A stretch of 22,011 bases of DNA. Origin: a virus. Shown piece after piece: positions 9,325-19,799 of this stretch. The stretch lies in IMG/VR virus record IMGVR_UViG_3300046749_000003, positions 1 through 22,011 of that record; one strand, written 5' to 3'. The position numbers were made by a program, and so were the translations under genes. Below the pieces are notes generated by a model. That model saw nothing but the letters and a program-made list of their open reading frames with translations. It was not told where the DNA came from and made no database searches. The first letter of the stretch is position 1. Every line of letters starts with the position of its first letter.

Positions 9325-10467
9325 TTATCTGTTCCCATACATATTAGCGCCAACTTGCAAGTAATTAAACAATCCAGGCTTCATTGAGTCTGTTTGCGTG
9401 TTTTGATTAGGAGTGCTTTGCAATGCCGCAATTGGTGCAGATAGCGCGGCTAAAGGCGCTCCCTGGTAACCAGCATATTGAGCTTTAGCCGCATCAATTA
9501 ATGCTTGTTGCATACTTTGTTGCAGTAACCCGGCTTGACCTTGCTGTTGTTGTATTGCTTGGCCAGTACCAAACGCCTGATTAGCCAAATTTCCCATTTG
9601 CGCGGCGGATGCAAGGTTTTGCTGATTAGCACCTGCAAGTGCCGCTTGGTTTGCTAATTGTGCAGACATAGCTTGCGTTGCGCCAAATTGATTTGCTTGG
9701 TTTTGCGCTGCTTGGTTTGTAAGTGCCATTTGATTAGACGCGCCCGACCCAAATTGAGCCGCTTGGTTTTGCGCCGCCATATTTGCCGCCGCAGCTTGAT
9801 TTGCCGCAGACGCACCAAATTGCCCAGCCTGATTTAATGCGGCTTGGTTTGCTAGATTTGACTGTTGGCCAAATCCAGCAGTAGTTGTCCCAGCAGCTAA
9901 GTTTGCTTGTTGATTAGCCAATGCCGCCTGTTGCGCTGTGCCAATATCTTGCATAGCCATTTGTTGTGCTTGTGTATAACCTGCTTGGCGCAAACCAGAA
10001 GCAGTTCTAGCCGCCTGGTCAGCAAATGCACGATTTGTTTCAGCTTCAGCAATGCCTTGCCTAGAGCCGCCAAAAGCATTAGCGGCAGTGGCTTGTGCGC
10101 CTAATTGATTTTGAGCCATTAACCTTGAGCGCTCTAAATCTCCGAGTGCTTGATCTACAACCTGAGTTTCAAATGGATTAGTATATGCGCCTAAGTTGGT
10201 ATTCGCTAATTGACCAGCTTGCACGTTCTGGGCTGTGACTGTTGGAGATTGGCCAATGGTGGAAGCACCATAATTTGCGCTAGTCATTGCGCTTGGATTA
10301 TATCCAGTGGCCGATGCGTTTGCCGCATTATATGCAGTCGGCCTAATAGCCATCGGAGCGTAATTCATCGCCTGCTGAGTGCCTTGCATCGCCTGTTGCA
10401 ATCCACCAGCTGCCGCTTGATTTACGTTAAAACCGCCTTGCGGCTGTATTTGTCCACCACCAGCCAT
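9325..10467 (-). CDS. Gln/Ala/Asn-rich repeat ejection protein
   Basis: The 380-residue protein is very rich in Gln, Ala and Asn. A central motif YTNPFETQVVDQALGDLER (residues 95-113) followed by NQLGAQATAANAFGGSRQG (120-138) and IAEAETNRAF is characteristic of a family found with ejection proteins in marine phages. Residues 216-281 contain three 22-residue units, each starting QFG, and further loose NQAA repeats lie around 200-215 and 282-310. The composition predicts long helices, perhaps a filamentous or coiled assembly. AGAGG lies before the ATG. It is the second of four proteins of this type; I assign an internal-virion role mainly on context and on the motif. Confidence 0.72.
   Translation of the reverse strand: MAGGGQIQPQGGFNVNQAAAGGLQQAMQGTQQAMNYAPMAIRPTAYNAANASATGYNPSAMTSANYGASTIGQSPTVTAQNVQAGQLANTNLGAYTNPFETQVVDQALGDLERSRLMAQNQLGAQATAANAFGGSRQGIAEAETNRAFADQAARTASGLRQAGYTQAQQMAMQDIGTAQQAALANQQANLAAGTTTAGFGQQSNLANQAALNQAGQFGASAANQAAAANMAAQNQAAQFGSGASNQMALTNQAAQNQANQFGATQAMSAQLANQAALAGANQQNLASAAQMGNLANQAFGTGQAIQQQQGQAGLLQQSMQQALIDAAKAQYAGYQGAPLAALSAPIAALQSTPNQNTQTDSMKPGLFNYLQVGANMYGNR
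9625..9822 (-). repeat. Three tandem 22-residue units (66 bp period)
   Basis: Within the Gln/Ala-rich protein, residues 216-237, 238-259 and 260-281 each begin QFG and keep the same length of 22 residues. The first two are closest (QFGASAANQAAAANMAAQNQ versus QFGSGASNQMALTNQAAQNQ); the third has drifted. The in-frame 66-bp period indicates growth by unequal duplication rather than an independent mobile repeat. Confidence 0.8.
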
Positions 10468-14410: not shown

Positions 14411-15262
14411 CTATTTTTTTCTTTTATGCCAGTAAAAATTTTTATAGCGATCAAAATGTTTCTTAGACATCTTATTGTAAAGTTTTGTTTTTTTGTTTTC
14501 ATCTAATACTCCTACAGAGTAGTTGTGTGGCTCTCTTTTAAAGGGTATAACGTGTATTAACGGCGTACCTTGTGGTATTATAAACTCTCCAACTTCTTTG
14601 CCTGTCCAAACATAAGGAAAATTAATATTGTTATAATACTCATCGGTATCTACCACACCTTCGATTATACATATATCATTTTCCCAATTATTAGATGGAT
14701 TTTTAAATTGCACTGAATAACCACGAGGTGTTTCTATAATCCAAGGATTTGCAAATTTAAATAATACTTTGCCAAATTTAAACTTACTTAGAGTGCAGGC
14801 CTCACCCACTTGATCCCAACCATGCCTTTCTAATATTTCATCTGCTGAATGCATATGCTCTGGGAACTGCATCATTACTGCAAGTTCATCAGTTATATTA
14901 TAAGATTGCCTTATTACCTCTAAGTTTTCTCCCTTTGTACCTATAAGGCTATCAGGGTTCATTGTAGGCTCAATTCCTGCATCTTCTCCATCTTTGCCAA
15001 AGAAAATATATACTGGATAAACTTTAACTTGTAAGTCAGCCCACAAAGGAATTATGTAACCCTGAGATACCGCATCAAGAACTGGAACGCACCTTTTGAC
15101 TGTACCAGCTTGTGTTTTTTCTTTACCATCTATTACGGGTTTTAACTTTTTAAACCATGCTGGCATAGCTTTATATGCTGGGATAGGATGAGGTATGCTG
15201 TCTAAATCTTCTTGAGATGCATGAAATTTTACTATTGTCTGTTTTTTTCTAAAAAAATTCAT
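14411..15262 (-). CDS. DUF6065-like accessory protein, function unknown
   Basis: The 283-residue protein begins MNFFRKKQTIVKFHASQED and contains IPAYKAMPAWFKKLKP, CVPVLDAVSQGYIIPLWADL (71-90 region), FKFANPWIIETPRGYSVQF and GTPLIHVIPFKREPHNY. The sequence of a 'MPaWfk.L' stretch, a Cys-led 'C.PvlDa.s.GYiiPL' strand and a terminal 'iPFkR' is what I associate with DUF6065-type proteins in cyanophages and other marine phages; this is recalled, not searched. The biochemical role is unknown. It is Lys-rich, and its codons end more often in A/T than those of the flanking tail genes, suggesting a later arrival. AGGTAAAAGC precedes the start. It lies 13 bases after a tail-assembly-type gene and is followed by a 129-bp non-coding gap. 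Confidence 0.7.
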   Translation of the reverse strand: MNFFRKKQTIVKFHASQEDLDSIPHPIPAYKAMPAWFKKLKPVIDGKEKTQAGTVKRCVPVLDAVSQGYIIPLWADLQVKVYPVYIFFGKDGEDAGIEPTMNPDSLIGTKGENLEVIRQSYNITDELAVMMQFPEHMHSADEILERHGWDQVGEACTLSKFKFGKVLFKFANPWIIETPRGYSVQFKNPSNNWENDICIIEGVVDTDEYYNNINFPYVWTGKEVGEFIIPQGTPLIHVIPFKREPHNYSVGVLDENKKTKLYNKMSKKHFDRYKNFYWHKRKK

Positions 15263-15693: not shown

Positions 15694-17058
15694 TTATATA
15701 TCCCTATATTTAATTGACATATTGTGTCCCATCCAAAAGTTATTACCTTGAGAGGTTGTTTTAATAGTTATGTTTCCATCTGAAGGAACCCAAGCAGTAA
15801 CACCTATATTTCCACCTATACTTGCGCCTTGGCCAACAGTTTCACCTGATTTAATTGATTTTGCGTTAATACCTGTATTAGAACCAACTGCATGAACGAA
15901 AGCCCAACCGCCTGAACCATTTACTCCCACCTCACCAGAGCCGCCAAGGTTGTTACCATTACCTGATGTAACAGATGTTGCTAAAATCCATCGCCCATTT
16001 GTACCGCCACTAAAGGATTGTAAGTTACCAGAGTTTGATGAGAGGTTAGCATTAGACCAGTTGTTACTGTCGAATAAAACACTTGAGCCGCCAGCAGGGT
16101 CTGTCCAAACAGCAGTACCAGAAGATGAATACCCAAGAATTTGACCAGATGCACCACCTGATGGGATGTGCTTATTCCCTGCTGATGTAGGGTGAGATAT
16201 TGTAACTGTACCAGAAGTACCGCCACCTGATAAGCCAGTGCCAGCAGTAACACCTTGAATATCACCAGTTGCACCAGTTGTAATTGCAGTAACGTGGCCC
16301 CGCCCATCTACTGTTATTTGATCAATCTTTGTGCCATCAGATGTACTACCATATGTGCCACTAAGTGCGGATGTATCGCTATGGTTAAATGTTGTACCAG
16401 ACAAACTAAGATCAGTGCCAGCACTGTAGGTTGTGTTAGTGTCTGTGTTTACAACTGTTTCTGTAGCTGTAGCTAAACCAGTGACATGTCCATAGGTATC
16501 AAGAGTAATATCTTGAATATATGTTCTGCCAGAGTTATTTGATGAGCCTTGAGATGACGTATCGCTGTGGCTTAAAGTTACATTACCAGTACCGCCACCA
16601 GATAACCCAGAACCAGCAGTAATAGTCTGGTCAGCAGTCGCTGATGCTTCAATGCCATTTAACTTAGAATGATCTGCATCTGTAAATACATTACTATTAC
16701 TAGCCGCTTCAACTGCCGCACGTATTTCTGCATTTGTTTGATCTGCTGTTGCGCCACTTTCTATTCCATCTAACTTAGTGCCATCCGCCGCAACATCACG
16801 TCCATCAACTGTACCGCCAACTGTAATATTACCAGTTGCGCTTACTGTAGTAGCCGCAACAGTTGACGCAGAGTTTGCACCAATTGGAGTTCCATCGATT
16901 GATCCAGAATTAATATCAATACCAGTGACAGGCGTCGTACCATCTAACAAATTATCGACGTTATCCAAATTGGTATTTATCTTTGTACCCCAAGTGTCCT
17001 CAGATGCACCGACTTCTGGCTTCACCAGACCATATGTGGTTGTTGTAGTATCTGCCAT
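15694..17058 (-). CDS. Tail fibre protein
   Basis: The 454-residue protein starts with the widespread fibre attachment motif [20 protein letters not shown] (9-28), followed by a helix [13 protein letters not shown]. The shaft shows repeats such as [16 protein letters not shown] (93-108) and [15 protein letters not shown] (131-145), and motifs [11 protein letters not shown] and [11 protein letters not shown] (186-195 and 249-259), typical of phage fibre collagen-like or triple-beta shafts. The C-terminal 120 residues are Gly/Asn/Ser-rich and beta-predicted, a likely receptor-binding head. AGGAGTTAATT precedes the ATG. The following gene is a possible fibre chaperone. Host recognition is the expected role but the target cannot be read from the sequence. 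Confidence 0.85.
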
Positions 17059-17086: not shown

Positions 17087-17170
17087 CTAATATCGTTCAT
17101 CAATGTAAGAGAAAGACGCAGTAGGCGCTAATCGCATACTGCCACAAAAATGCTTAAATTGCAACATCAT
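17087..17170 (-). CDS. Possible 27-residue small protein (ATGA-coupled)
   Basis: Between the repeat protein and the tail fibre there is a 27-codon open frame, MMLQFKHFCGSMRLAPTASF... ending SYIDERY. Its ATG overlaps the TGA of the upstream gene (ATGA), the same coupling found at several joints of this operon. No good Shine-Dalgarno lies upstream, so re-initiation would be needed. The rest of the 108-bp gap otherwise has no gene. It could be chance, since it is short. Confidence 0.4.
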   Translation of the reverse strand: MMLQFKHFCGSMRLAPTASFSYIDERY

Positions 17171-18033
17171 GCGGCTGTCCATATCTCTGTTACTTTTGGC
17201 ACTGTTTGCCATGTTTCTGTTGCGGCTGGTAAGTCTTCCCATTTCTCAATTGCGCTTGCCGTAAATGCAGATGTATTAATTATTGTAGTGTTTAATAAAA
17301 ATACCCTATTGCAAGATGCGGTTACATTACTTGTAGTACCTATATTTGCTGATTTAGAGAAAACCCCAATTCCATTTGCTGTAGCAGTGGATGCAGTGGC
17401 AATCTGTGAATTAAATAATCTAACCCTATCTACTGAACCTGTAGCAGTTGATGAAGTTGAAACACTTGCACTGCCTTGAAATATTTTTTCTGATGCACAA
17501 GTCGCTGAAGATGTAGTGGATATTGCAACACTATCACTAACAACAAATACTCCAGAGGCCGTTGCAGATAGTGTAGATGAAATTGTGGCAGATGTTTGCC
17601 TATCTCTTTCGCCAGATGTCACTACACCAGACGCTGTTGCTACAATGGAACTAGCAATTCTTACACGCTTACCAGCAGACGCAGTAGAAGAAACAGTTGC
17701 AACTGCGGTTGATGAGGCTCTAACCCTATCTATACCAACGCCTGTTACACTAGTTGTAGATATAGTTGCACTTCTTACGAATGTAACATTGGGAACAACT
17801 GTAGTTGCACTCGTTTGCGGTATAGCCGCAGATGTATTTCTTGTTAAATTATAGGCTGAAGAAATGGTTAAGTCATTAGATGACGTTGCAGAGCCAACTG
17901 CTGTTTTAGCGCCAGCCGCAGAAACACTTGCGGCTGGAGATATTGTTACTGAGGCGTCCTTGACTGATCCATCAAAGCCGAATGTATGTTCGCCATATAG
18001 ACTGTAGCCGTAGCCACCTCGGTAAACCGTCAT
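17167..18033 (-). CDS. Virion protein made of twelve perfect-length 20-residue repeats
   Basis: The 288-residue protein has a Tyr/Gly-rich head (MTVYRGGYGYSLYGEHTFGF), then residues 29-268 that divide into twelve units of exactly 20 residues with no gaps, rich in Ala, Ser, Thr and Val. Examples are ATISTTSVTGVGIDRVRASS (89-108) and ASVSTSSTATGSVDRVRLFN (189-208). The tail has Trp at 265, 275 and 285, spaced 10 apart. Such strict periodicity with small and beta-branched residues suggests a beta-solenoid or stacked beta repeat, plausible for a tail or fibre accessory. The gene sits between the Gp80-like protein and the fibre. I do not recognise a specific family name. Confidence 0.8.
   Translation of the reverse strand: MTVYRGGYGYSLYGEHTFGFDGSVKDASVTISPAASVSAAGAKTAVGSATSSNDLTISSAYNLTRNTSAAIPQTSATTVVPNVTFVRSATISTTSVTGVGIDRVRASSTAVATVSSTASAGKRVRIASSIVATASGVVTSGERDRQTSATISSTLSATASGVFVVSDSVAISTTSSATCASEKIFQGSASVSTSSTATGSVDRVRLFNSQIATASTATANGIGVFSKSANIGTTSNVTASCNRVFLLNTTIINTSAFTASAIEKWEDLPAATETWQTVPKVTEIWTAA
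17230..17949 (-). repeat. Twelve tandem 60-bp units encoding 20-residue repeats
   Basis: The repeat covers residues 29-268 of the gene at 17167-18033. Unit boundaries fall every 60 bases with no insertions or deletions; the DNA copies have diverged, but positions 3 (I/V), 4-8 (S/T-rich) and 14-16 (DRVR-type in several units) recur. The last three units blend into a Trp-rich tail. Confidence 0.75.
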
Positions 18034-18038
18034 TTAAT

Positions 18039-18419
18039 TTACTCTAAAGTAATGTCTAAATCACCAGCAGGAATGCGGAATACGTCTCCAGTATCAATTG
18101 CTTTAGATGCAGATAATGCCGCGTATGCAATTAAGTTACCACCAGATGCCGCATCAAACACGCCTACATGTGAAACTGTTCCATATGATGCTGTTGCTGT
18201 AGGGTATTCAACAGCGCCAGAATTTGTAGCTGTGTTACCAGATACAGTAAATGCAACCGACTGACGCGCATATGCTCCGCCTGATACTTCAGTACCACCG
18301 CCGCTATCGTTCGGTGCGGCTGTGTATAATGCAACGTGCCACGCAGTAGGACGTGTCACTGAACCTGTTGTGAATATGTATTGCAATACTCTTGTTTCGA
18401 AATCGTTTGAAAAACTCAT
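18039..18419 (-). CDS. Gp80-like tail protein
   Basis: The 126-residue product carries WHVALYTAAPNDSGGGTEVSGG (about 27-48) then AYARQSVAFTVSGNTATN, and later YGTVSHVGVFDAASGGNLIAY and IPAGDLDITLE. The pattern 'ALyTaaP.d.G.gtEvsGG.YaRq.v.f' with a later 'h.gvfDAasGGnLia' is widespread in tailed phages and is usually annotated as tail fibre or Gp80-like. I see it as a small beta-rich tail component; the precise position in the virion is not known from the sequence. It lies one base after the adaptor gene; AAGGG lies upstream of the ATG. Confidence 0.8.
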   Translation of the reverse strand: MSFSNDFETRVLQYIFTTGSVTRPTAWHVALYTAAPNDSGGGTEVSGGAYARQSVAFTVSGNTATNSGAVEYPTATASYGTVSHVGVFDAASGGNLIAYAALSASKAIDTGDVFRIPAGDLDITLE

Positions 18420-18420
18420 T

Positions 18421-19041
18421 TTAATATGCCCTTATTTTCATGCGGCGACCAGAGCCGCCATATTTAGTTTGATCGCTGACTGCATTAATTGCGTCAACAG
18501 CGCTTTGATACAAAGCCGCCCAAGTAGTAATTCGAGCGTCTTCTTTTAAATATGGGGCTGAGTGTACCAAAGCTCCATACAAATAAGCATCTGGATATTC
18601 GCCCAGAAGCCAATTGGTTGTATTACTGTCAGATAATGCTGGGATTTTCTGGTAGTAATATAATTCTGCATTGTATACGCCATCTGGCGCTGGGTGTACT
18701 TGTAGTTCGCCAGCAGTCAAAGCATAATATCTTGGTTTTCCTGATGTATTAAGGTTTCTAGCCTGCCTAGACAGTAGCTGCGACTGAGAAATTAATTCAA
18801 GTGGGTTTGTATCGCCGCTTGTTACGTGAAATCTAATTGGCTCAAGCATATCGGCAGGTATTGCGCTGTATTTAGTGTCAATTTCAGCCGTTGATCGAGC
18901 TTCCATCTTCCAATGGCGTATATTTCTATTCATATCAGCCTCAACAAGCGATATAAATGTAGGGGATATTGTATTTAAATCATCCCTATTTAAAAAATCA
19001 GTTATATTTGATTTTAATTCTGCATAAGTCGTAATTGACAT
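18421..19041 (-). CDS. Head-tail adaptor (SU10-type)
   Basis: The 206-residue protein begins TTYAELKSNITDFLNRDDLNTISPTFISLVEADMNRNIR, a typical opening of SU10-type phage adaptor proteins ('tya.Lk..i..fl.RdDl....p.fi.laea.mnr.lr'). It continues with LQVHPAPDGVYNAELYYYQKI, a 'hPaP...' strand motif also shared by this family, and a C-terminal alpha-helical part (ARITTWAALYQSAVDAINAV). Adaptors attach to the portal after packaging and receive the tail. The co-occurrence with an SU10-type capsid supports it. It joins the upstream gene by a TAATG overlap. Confidence 0.85.
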   Translation of the reverse strand: MSITTYAELKSNITDFLNRDDLNTISPTFISLVEADMNRNIRHWKMEARSTAEIDTKYSAIPADMLEPIRFHVTSGDTNPLELISQSQLLSRQARNLNTSGKPRYYALTAGELQVHPAPDGVYNAELYYYQKIPALSDSNTTNWLLGEYPDAYLYGALVHSAPYLKEDARITTWAALYQSAVDAINAVSDQTKYGGSGRRMKIRAY

Positions 19042-19799
19042 TACATTAAACCTAACTCTGCTAATACTTGTGGGTCAGTGTTATCATAGAAAAATTTTAA
19101 AGCTTCTCTTTCTGAGCCTTCTCTGCCTTCTGTCATTGCTTTTACAATTGGCAAATAATATACATCGCTTTTTATTTTTTCATAAAATCTATTAAAACCA
19201 ATATCAGATTCCATAGCAGGCGCTTCAGTGCCGTATCCTGGCGGATTTGCATCTATAGTTAGTGGTGTAGTTCCAAATCCAGGCATTGGATTATTCGGCA
19301 TTGCGCCGTATCCTGGCGGATTTGCATCTATAGTTAATGGTGTAGTTCCATATCCTGGCATTGGATTATTCGGCATAACACTTTGCGTCGCTAAAACTCC
19401 ACTAGGCGGATATTCTGGGTAATCATATATAATTTCATCAGGTCTACTTGTAGATGGCATATCTAACGCATCTGGGCGCATATTTACCCTTCGGCTGCCA
19501 TAACCAGGTGGTGTTGCGTTAATATTATTCATATCTGACATACCAGAAGTCATTTTTGACAGTAATCCACGTTTAATTCTGTCATTTCCTTCAAAATTAG
19601 CCTGACCTAACGTGCCGTAACTCGTTCTTTCGCCAAAATTCTCTGGTCTTTTGCCATCCGCGCCTAATAATTGGCCACCAACATATTCCATGTTGTCGCC
19701 TGGGGTCAAAATGTTAGCTAAAAATTCAGTTATACTGTTTCTATCGCCTGCGCCCCTGTCGAGCGAGTTAAGAAAACTTAAAAATTTATTTTGAGCCAT
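19041..19799 (-). CDS. Pro/Gly-repeat protein of unknown function
   Basis: The 252-residue product has an N-terminal helix (NKFLSFLNSLDRGAG), a low-complexity Pro/Gly/Asn/Tyr middle and a charged C-terminal domain (SDIGFNRFYEKIKSDVYYL, then YDNTDPQVLAELGLM). Two nearly identical 25-residue units occupy 142-191 (MPNNPMPGYGTTPLTIDANP, then PGYGA). The PPGYG motif also occurs once more near residue 97. The middle is probably disordered. I do not recognise a family; a virion or assembly role follows from its place between terminase and adaptor. AAGGTCAAAAC precedes the ATG. Confidence 0.75.
   Translation of the reverse strand: MAQNKFLSFLNSLDRGAGDRNSITEFLANILTPGDNMEYVGGQLLGADGKRPENFGERTSYGTLGQANFEGNDRIKRGLLSKMTSGMSDMNNINATPPGYGSRRVNMRPDALDMPSTSRPDEIIYDYPEYPPSGVLATQSVMPNNPMPGYGTTPLTIDANPPGYGAMPNNPMPGFGTTPLTIDANPPGYGTEAPAMESDIGFNRFYEKIKSDVYYLPIVKAMTEGREGSEREALKFFYDNTDPQVLAELGLM
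19230..19379 (-). repeat. Direct tandem duplication, two 75-bp units
   Basis: Units 19230-19304 and 19305-19379 are 75 bases each and nearly identical, with only a few substitutions (for example AGTGGT versus AATGGT, and AAATCCAGG versus ATATCCTGG on the plus strand). The period is a multiple of three, so it adds 25 codons without a frameshift. The high identity suggests a recent duplication. Confidence 0.9.

What the first reader, a model, noticed from the sequence alone, without database searches (positions are those of the whole stretch)
17230..17949. A protein built of twelve gap-free 20-residue repeats
Residues 29-268 of the 288-residue product partition exactly into 12 x 20 residues, with I/V and S/T recurring at fixed places and DRVR-type basic clusters in several units. 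Trp at 265, 275 and 285 continues a 10-residue rhythm. Absence of any indel in a diverged repeat implies structural constraint, for example one turn per unit in a beta-solenoid or stacked trimer. It is placed beside the fibre, so it may be a tail spike, whisker or decoration element not yet described.
Basis: partly seen in the sequence, partly recalled or inferred. Interest (0 to 1): 0.6.

Follow-up and report, generated by a model that had tools for sequence, protein, structure and literature searches.

The report
Repeat "rope" threading phage fibre beads
This phage gene encodes a chain of twelve 20-amino-acid repeats that most likely serves as the central thread on which beads of the neighbouring fibre protein are strung, so that the number of repeats would set the length of the virus's side fibre.

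Summary
In detail: residues 29-268 of the ORF at 17167-18033 (-) form 12 gap-free 20-residue units (period-20 Z 8.6-8.7; unit-column Z 18.6 against 2000 shuffles), followed by Trp 265, 275 and 285. Homologues change unit number in exact 20-residue steps, while unit length stays fixed. From an N-terminal Asp to the first tail Trp, the distance is 4 modulo 20 in 21 of 24 non-redundant ropes; all 84 Trp-Trp steps are 10. The key is the gene just upstream (18039-18419), a full-length member of Pfam Gp80, the bead protein of podophage GP4 "fiber I" (PDB 8jou, 10 chains; profile E=7e-44). A 20-residue-repeat protein follows gp80 directly in 60 of 75 loci, lies further downstream in 7 more, and occurs in 49 loci of a second gp80 clade. 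A GP4-identical locus has a 325-aa protein there with 10-11 units, against 10 gp80 subunits in 8jou. Best explanation: this is the "rope" that threads gp80 dimers, about one unit per subunit. Threading and stoichiometry are inferred. A free-standing beta-solenoid spike is less likely: the protein alone gives no confident fold (pLDDT 35). The rope has no Pfam, PHROG or PDB entry.

The parts
17167..18033 (-). CDS of the 20-residue-repeat 'rope' protein, 288 aa
   Evidence: ORF; 29 relatives in viral contigs; no Pfam, PHROG or PDB match
17950..18033 (-). N-terminal 28-residue cap, MTVYRGGYGYSLYGEHTFGFDGSVKDAS (Y-G rich)
   Evidence: nearly identical in all relatives that cover it; YGxGxYG and G-x-D-G conserved in distant ropes
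17230..17949 (-). twelve 20-residue units
   Evidence: homologues differ by 60- and 120-nt steps
17170..17241 (-). C-terminal tail with Trp at 265, 275 and 285 (10-residue step; overlaps the last unit)
   Evidence: 84 of 84 Trp-Trp spacings are 10 in 24 non-redundant ropes; the tail changes by 30 nt
18039..18419 (-). GP4 gp80-family (fiber I bead) protein, 126 aa, directly upstream
   Evidence: Pfam PF23140 E=6e-39; PDB 8jou_a E=6e-8; the family profile matches 8jou_a at E=7e-44 over full length
18421..19041 (-). tail adaptor protein, same Pfam family (PF24175) as the GP4 adaptor, next gene upstream
15694..17058 (-). separate tail fibre gene next to the rope gene
   Evidence: PHROG tail fibre matches

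Best explanation
The ORF encodes the axial thread ('rope') of a bead-on-a-string side fibre of the GP4 fiber I kind. Shown: the fixed 20-residue register; steps of whole units between relatives; near-constant genetic pairing with a gp80-family bead gene; 10-11 units in the protein encoded next to a GP4-identical gp80, against 10 gp80 chains in structure 8jou. Inferred: each 20-residue unit (two short beta strands) binds one gp80 subunit, so two successive units hold one gp80 dimer; the extended chain holds the beads in a row; the number of units sets the number of beads and hence fibre length. The 12 units here predict about 12 gp80 subunits (six dimers). The Y-G-rich N-terminus and the Trp decapeptide tail are the ends of the thread, one for anchoring to the neck or adaptor ring and the other for the tip; which is which is unknown.
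For: Direct downstream neighbour of gp80 has period 20 (Z>3.5) in 60 of 75 loci, against 8 of 403 control ORFs. Seven of those 8 control hits lie downstream of gp80 in loci where the next gene is not a rope, i.e. displaced ropes. In a second gp80 clade 49 loci have one and 5 with at least 3 kb do not. All 25 checked loci of the window's own rope family have gp80 directly upstream. Cultured phages show the same order: MEP401, BcepIL02, BcepMigl, POI1126, vB_OspP_OH, C72C1, PBC5 and, with weaker periodicity, phiM5. In a locus with GP4-identical gp80 and adaptor (L125) the next gene has 10-11 units; 8jou holds 10 gp80 chains. Register is 4 modulo 20 in 21 of 24 ropes. gp80-fold whisker proteins of Sf14 and Bas63 are Foldseek neighbours, and the Sf14 paper describes whisker chains threading through one another (PMC11821841). 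The lone rope is predicted unfolded.
Against: The GP4 rope is not in the PDB by sequence, so its identity with the 325-aa product rests on synteny and repeat count. The GP4 paper was not readable here. Virion proteomics is mixed: BcepIL02 gp56 and BcepMigl gp57 are labelled virion-associated, but JC1 gp54 is absent from the MS list (PMC9144972) and phiM5_18 lacks the 'detected' note that its neighbours carry. No 40-residue alternation, which a two-units-per-dimer rule might leave, was found. No natural gp80-rope fusion was confirmed. Coordinates of the fused model were not available, so docking was not seen.
Confidence: 0.72

Rival explanations
1. A self-standing beta-solenoid (one coil per 20-residue unit) forming a spike or whisker beside the tail; gp80 merely shares the operon.
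For: The model of the L047 gp80+rope reading has two strands per 20 residues at pLDDT about 60-70, and VIA-align matches that part to antifreeze proteins, SufD and CsgA (Z 8.8-11.3). Solenoids often have fixed coil length.
Against: Foldseek itself gives the solenoid hits very low probability. The window protein alone has pLDDT 35. Unit faces are Ser/Thr/Ala rich with little hydrophobic core. It does not explain near-constant pairing with gp80.
Confidence: 0.15
2. A non-virion assembly factor: a template or chaperone that collects gp80 dimers and is removed, or stays in traces only.
For: JC1 gp54 and phiM5_18 not reported in virion proteomes although the gp80 homologues are.
Against: BcepIL02 gp56 and BcepMigl gp57 are labelled virion-associated. 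The rope described for GP4 is in the virion (recalled abstract). Some long ropes carry an inserted Laminin-G-like region (below cut-off), more fitting for a displayed fibre.
Confidence: 0.08
3. Fast-evolving low-complexity Ser/Thr-rich surface decoration with no defined partner.
For: Rope sequence diverges faster than gp80 (about 80% against 93% identity between the same relatives); low-complexity composition.
Against: Strict register over hundreds of residues and across diverged phages is not expected without a structural partner or fold.
Confidence: 0.05

Closest known systems
Fiber I of Ralstonia podophage GP4 (PDB 8jou; gp80 beads on a rope)
   Same: gp80-family bead gene, adaptor gene of the same Pfam family, and a 20-22-residue-repeat protein directly after gp80
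   Different: The window rope has strict 20-residue units and a Trp decapeptide tail; the GP4-side protein has 19-22-residue units, no such tail and a different C-terminus; no sequence similarity beyond the period was measured
Whiskers of Shigella phage Sf14 and E. coli phage Bas63 (9c39, 9mt4)
   Same: gp80-like fold in small neck appendage proteins; chains reported to thread through whiskers (Sf14)
   Different: Two dimers per whisker; no long repeat protein known to me; contractile-tailed phages
Bead-chain neck fibres of Anabaena phage A-1(L)
   Same: Five bead-like neck fibres on a 15-fold ring, as recalled for GP4
   Different: Built by head-to-tail stacking of gp81 trimers, without a repeat thread; length is not set by a repeat protein
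PHROG 19041 (Lessievirus virion structural protein, e.g. BcepMigl gp57)
   Same: Same gene position after gp80 and a 20-22-residue repeat
   Different: Window protein does not match the profile

Membership tests
GP4 fiber I module | gp80-family bead protein present | tested here: met
   18039-18419: Pfam Gp80 E=6e-39; 8jou_a matched by the family profile at E=7e-44
GP4 fiber I module | elongated rope protein encoded with gp80 | tested here: inconclusive
   A repeat protein is directly downstream, as at the GP4-identical locus L125; that the latter is the GP4 rope is inferred, not shown
GP4 fiber I module | rope physically threads gp80 dimers | not testable with these tools
   No coordinates, no complex prediction, rope absent from the PDB by sequence
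GP4 fiber I module | attachment to a 15-fold fibre-tail adaptor | not tested
   The adaptor family is present (PF24175), but the 15-fold ring protein was not identified in the window
Beta-solenoid tail spike | confident solenoid fold as monomer or trimer | tested here: inconclusive
   Window protein pLDDT 35, pTM 0.23; relative pLDDT 60-70; trimer not testable
Beta-solenoid tail spike | sequence match to a known solenoid or tailspike family | tested here: not met
   No Pfam match up to E=1 and no PHROG match up to E=0.1; only PDB hit is E=0.48 to an unrelated enzyme
PHROG 19041 | profile match | tested here: not met
   No PHROG match for the window protein

The most novel reading that the evidence does not exclude
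The protein is a molecular ruler in which each 20-residue unit recruits one gp80 subunit, so fibre length in a very widespread group of phages is written directly as repeat number (about 6 to 21 units in the non-redundant ropes measured, more in the longest such as the 1088-aa example) and evolves by whole-unit gain and loss. It would also identify the sequence of the GP4 rope.
Probability: 0.5. Interest if true: 0.7.

Novelty: new variant of a known kind. Interest (0 to 1): 0.55.

Why it matters
Fibre length in phages is usually set by one long protein or by head-to-tail stacking. Here repeat number in a separate thread could count the beads, which can be tested by comparing natural variants. 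The work also gives a rule (gp80-type gene plus a 20-residue-repeat protein nearby) that would annotate a large, now nameless set of phage proteins listed as 'hypothetical', 'serine-rich adhesin' or 'ribonuclease E', and it proposes the gene for the GP4 rope.

Tried and rejected
1) Sequence search of the PDB for the rope (window protein, BcepMigl, MW202879, Lessievirus profile, GP4-like 325 aa): no credible hit. Chains of unknown residues are left out of that library, so an unassigned rope chain in 8jou would not show. 2) A 40-residue (dimer) super-period: lag 40 exceeds lag 20 in only 10 of 36 ropes; rejected. 3) Structure of the window rope alone: no usable model. 5) Natural gp80-rope fusions: none seen by ORF length in the two sets of 80 gp80 loci, though 14 loci of the second set were not parsed by my script. 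BFVD hits of 220-274 aa that align over much of the query are unverified candidates. One phage has two gp80 domains in one chain (MW202476). 6) The GP4 paper (J Mol Biol 2023) is not in the library; 'five dimers linked by a rope' is my recollection of its abstract.

Full report
OBSERVATION. The window carries a podovirus-like structural cassette on the minus strand: terminase, adaptor (SU10_adaptor family), gp80-family protein, the repeat ORF, tail fibre, nozzle-like protein, portal and capsid protein. The ORF at 17167-18033 does contain twelve ungapped 20-residue units at exactly the stated coordinates. A segmentation that allowed spacings of 18-24 returned twelve units all spaced 20. Lag-20 similarity is Z=8.7, and the stacked columns score Z=18.6 against 2000 shuffles. 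Units are diverged (25% protein identity, 41% DNA identity on average), so this is not a recent tandem duplication. Trp is at 265, 275 and 285, and no other tested ORF of the window has this period.

HOMOLOGUES. Twenty-nine viral contigs encode relatives. Complete ones are 278, 288, 408, 428, 448, 558 and 568 residues: a 28-residue N-terminus, whole 20-residue units, and a tail of 10-residue steps. Between close relatives the repeat-region indels are 60 or 120 nt, or sum to a multiple of 60, and tail indels are 30 nt; one pair shows only a compensating 3-nt shift. Across 24 non-redundant ropes with a recognisable N-terminal Asp and Trp tail, the distance between the two is 4 modulo 20 in 21, and all 84 Trp-Trp steps are 10. 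Ropes at 24-35% identity align with almost no gaps within units.

PARTNER. The gene directly upstream is a gp80 of podophage GP4: Pfam PF23140 E=6e-39, PDB 8jou_a E=6e-8, family profile E=7e-44 over full length. PDB 8jou is titled 'Fiber I and fiber-tail-adaptor of phage GP4' and holds ten copies of the chain. From memory of the abstract of that work (J Mol Biol 2023, 168258; not readable here), each fiber I has five gp80 dimers linked by an elongated rope protein.

ASSOCIATION. I fetched 80 gp80 loci. The gene right after gp80 has period 20 (Z>3.5) in 60 of 75 testable loci, median Z 6.8. Of 403 other ORFs in the same loci 8 pass, and 7 of these 8 lie downstream of gp80 in loci where its direct neighbour is not a rope, so they look like displaced ropes. 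In a second gp80 clade 49 loci have such a protein, 5 with at least 3 kb of downstream sequence do not, 12 had less than 3 kb and 14 were not parsed. All 25 loci of the window's own rope family checked have gp80 directly upstream. Cultured phages show the same order, including Lessieviruses whose gp80 is 57-68% identical to that of GP4. These loci are related to each other, so the counts are not independent trials.

GP4 ITSELF. L125 encodes a gp80 identical over the 127 residues compared with the 8jou chain and an adaptor matching 8jov over its full length (E=2e-144). Its next gene (325 aa) has 10 units by segmentation and an eleventh by eye, spaced 19-22. It is absent from the PDB by sequence. 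Ten gp80 chains and 10-11 units suggest about one unit per subunit. This is a correlation in one phage only.

FOLD. The window protein alone gives no confident model (pLDDT 35), as expected of a chain that folds on a partner but also of a shallow alignment. A relative read through into its gp80 gives a good gp80 domain and, for the rope, two short strands per unit at pLDDT 60-70. VIA-align finds solenoids for that part with Z 8.8-11.3, but Foldseek gives them very low probability. So a solenoid is not excluded. The gp80 part matches GP4 gp80 and whisker proteins of Sf14 and Bas63. In Sf14 one whisker chain is reported to thread through both whiskers (PMC11821841), a precedent for threading in gp80-fold appendages.

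AGAINST. In JC1 the gp80 homologue was found in virions but the putative rope was not (PMC9144972). The phiM5 rope also lacks the proteome note. Low copy number could explain this, but that was not tested. No even-odd alternation of units was found.

VERDICT. Most likely a rope or ruler for a gp80 bead fibre. The rope as a structural part is (by recollection) known from GP4; its sequence family, fixed register, Trp tail and near-constant pairing with gp80 appear undescribed in the databases and papers searched here.

Noticed in passing
L078:2657-5047, L109:922-2511, L113:4385-5974: Some ropes carry a large non-repeat insert resembling a Laminin-G / concanavalin-like domain (L109 Pfam E=0.004, below cut-off): ropes may also carry sugar-binding domains.
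   Followed up: partly
L139:3495-4277 (MW202476): Two gp80-like domains in one polypeptide, a natural covalent dimer annotated as 'b-glycanase'.
   Followed up: partly
L030:7065-8591 (Octadecabacter virus DB2, 'ribonuclease E'): Chimeric protein: N-terminal domain, a different 22-residue repeat, then about two rope units and the Trp decapeptide tail; a second gp80 paralogue (gp9) sits where the rope usually is.
   Followed up: partly
L138:5750-7376 (Venkman): Adhesin-like protein with a very strong 17-residue period (Z 24) in a gp80-containing phage.
   Followed up: no
L136, L137 (Psychrobacillus and Sporosarcina phages): gp80-family gene lies between baseplate J and a DUF2313-type gene, a different setting without a clear 20-residue rope.
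   Followed up: no
window 14411-15262 (-): 283-aa DUF6065 protein inserted among the tail genes; function unknown.
   Followed up: no
window 19041-19799 (-): Protein with two near-identical PNNPMPGxGTTPLTIDANPPGYG segments (period 25).
   Followed up: no
window 9325-10467 (-): Ala/Gln/Asn-rich protein with a weak 22-residue period (Z 4.0).
   Followed up: no
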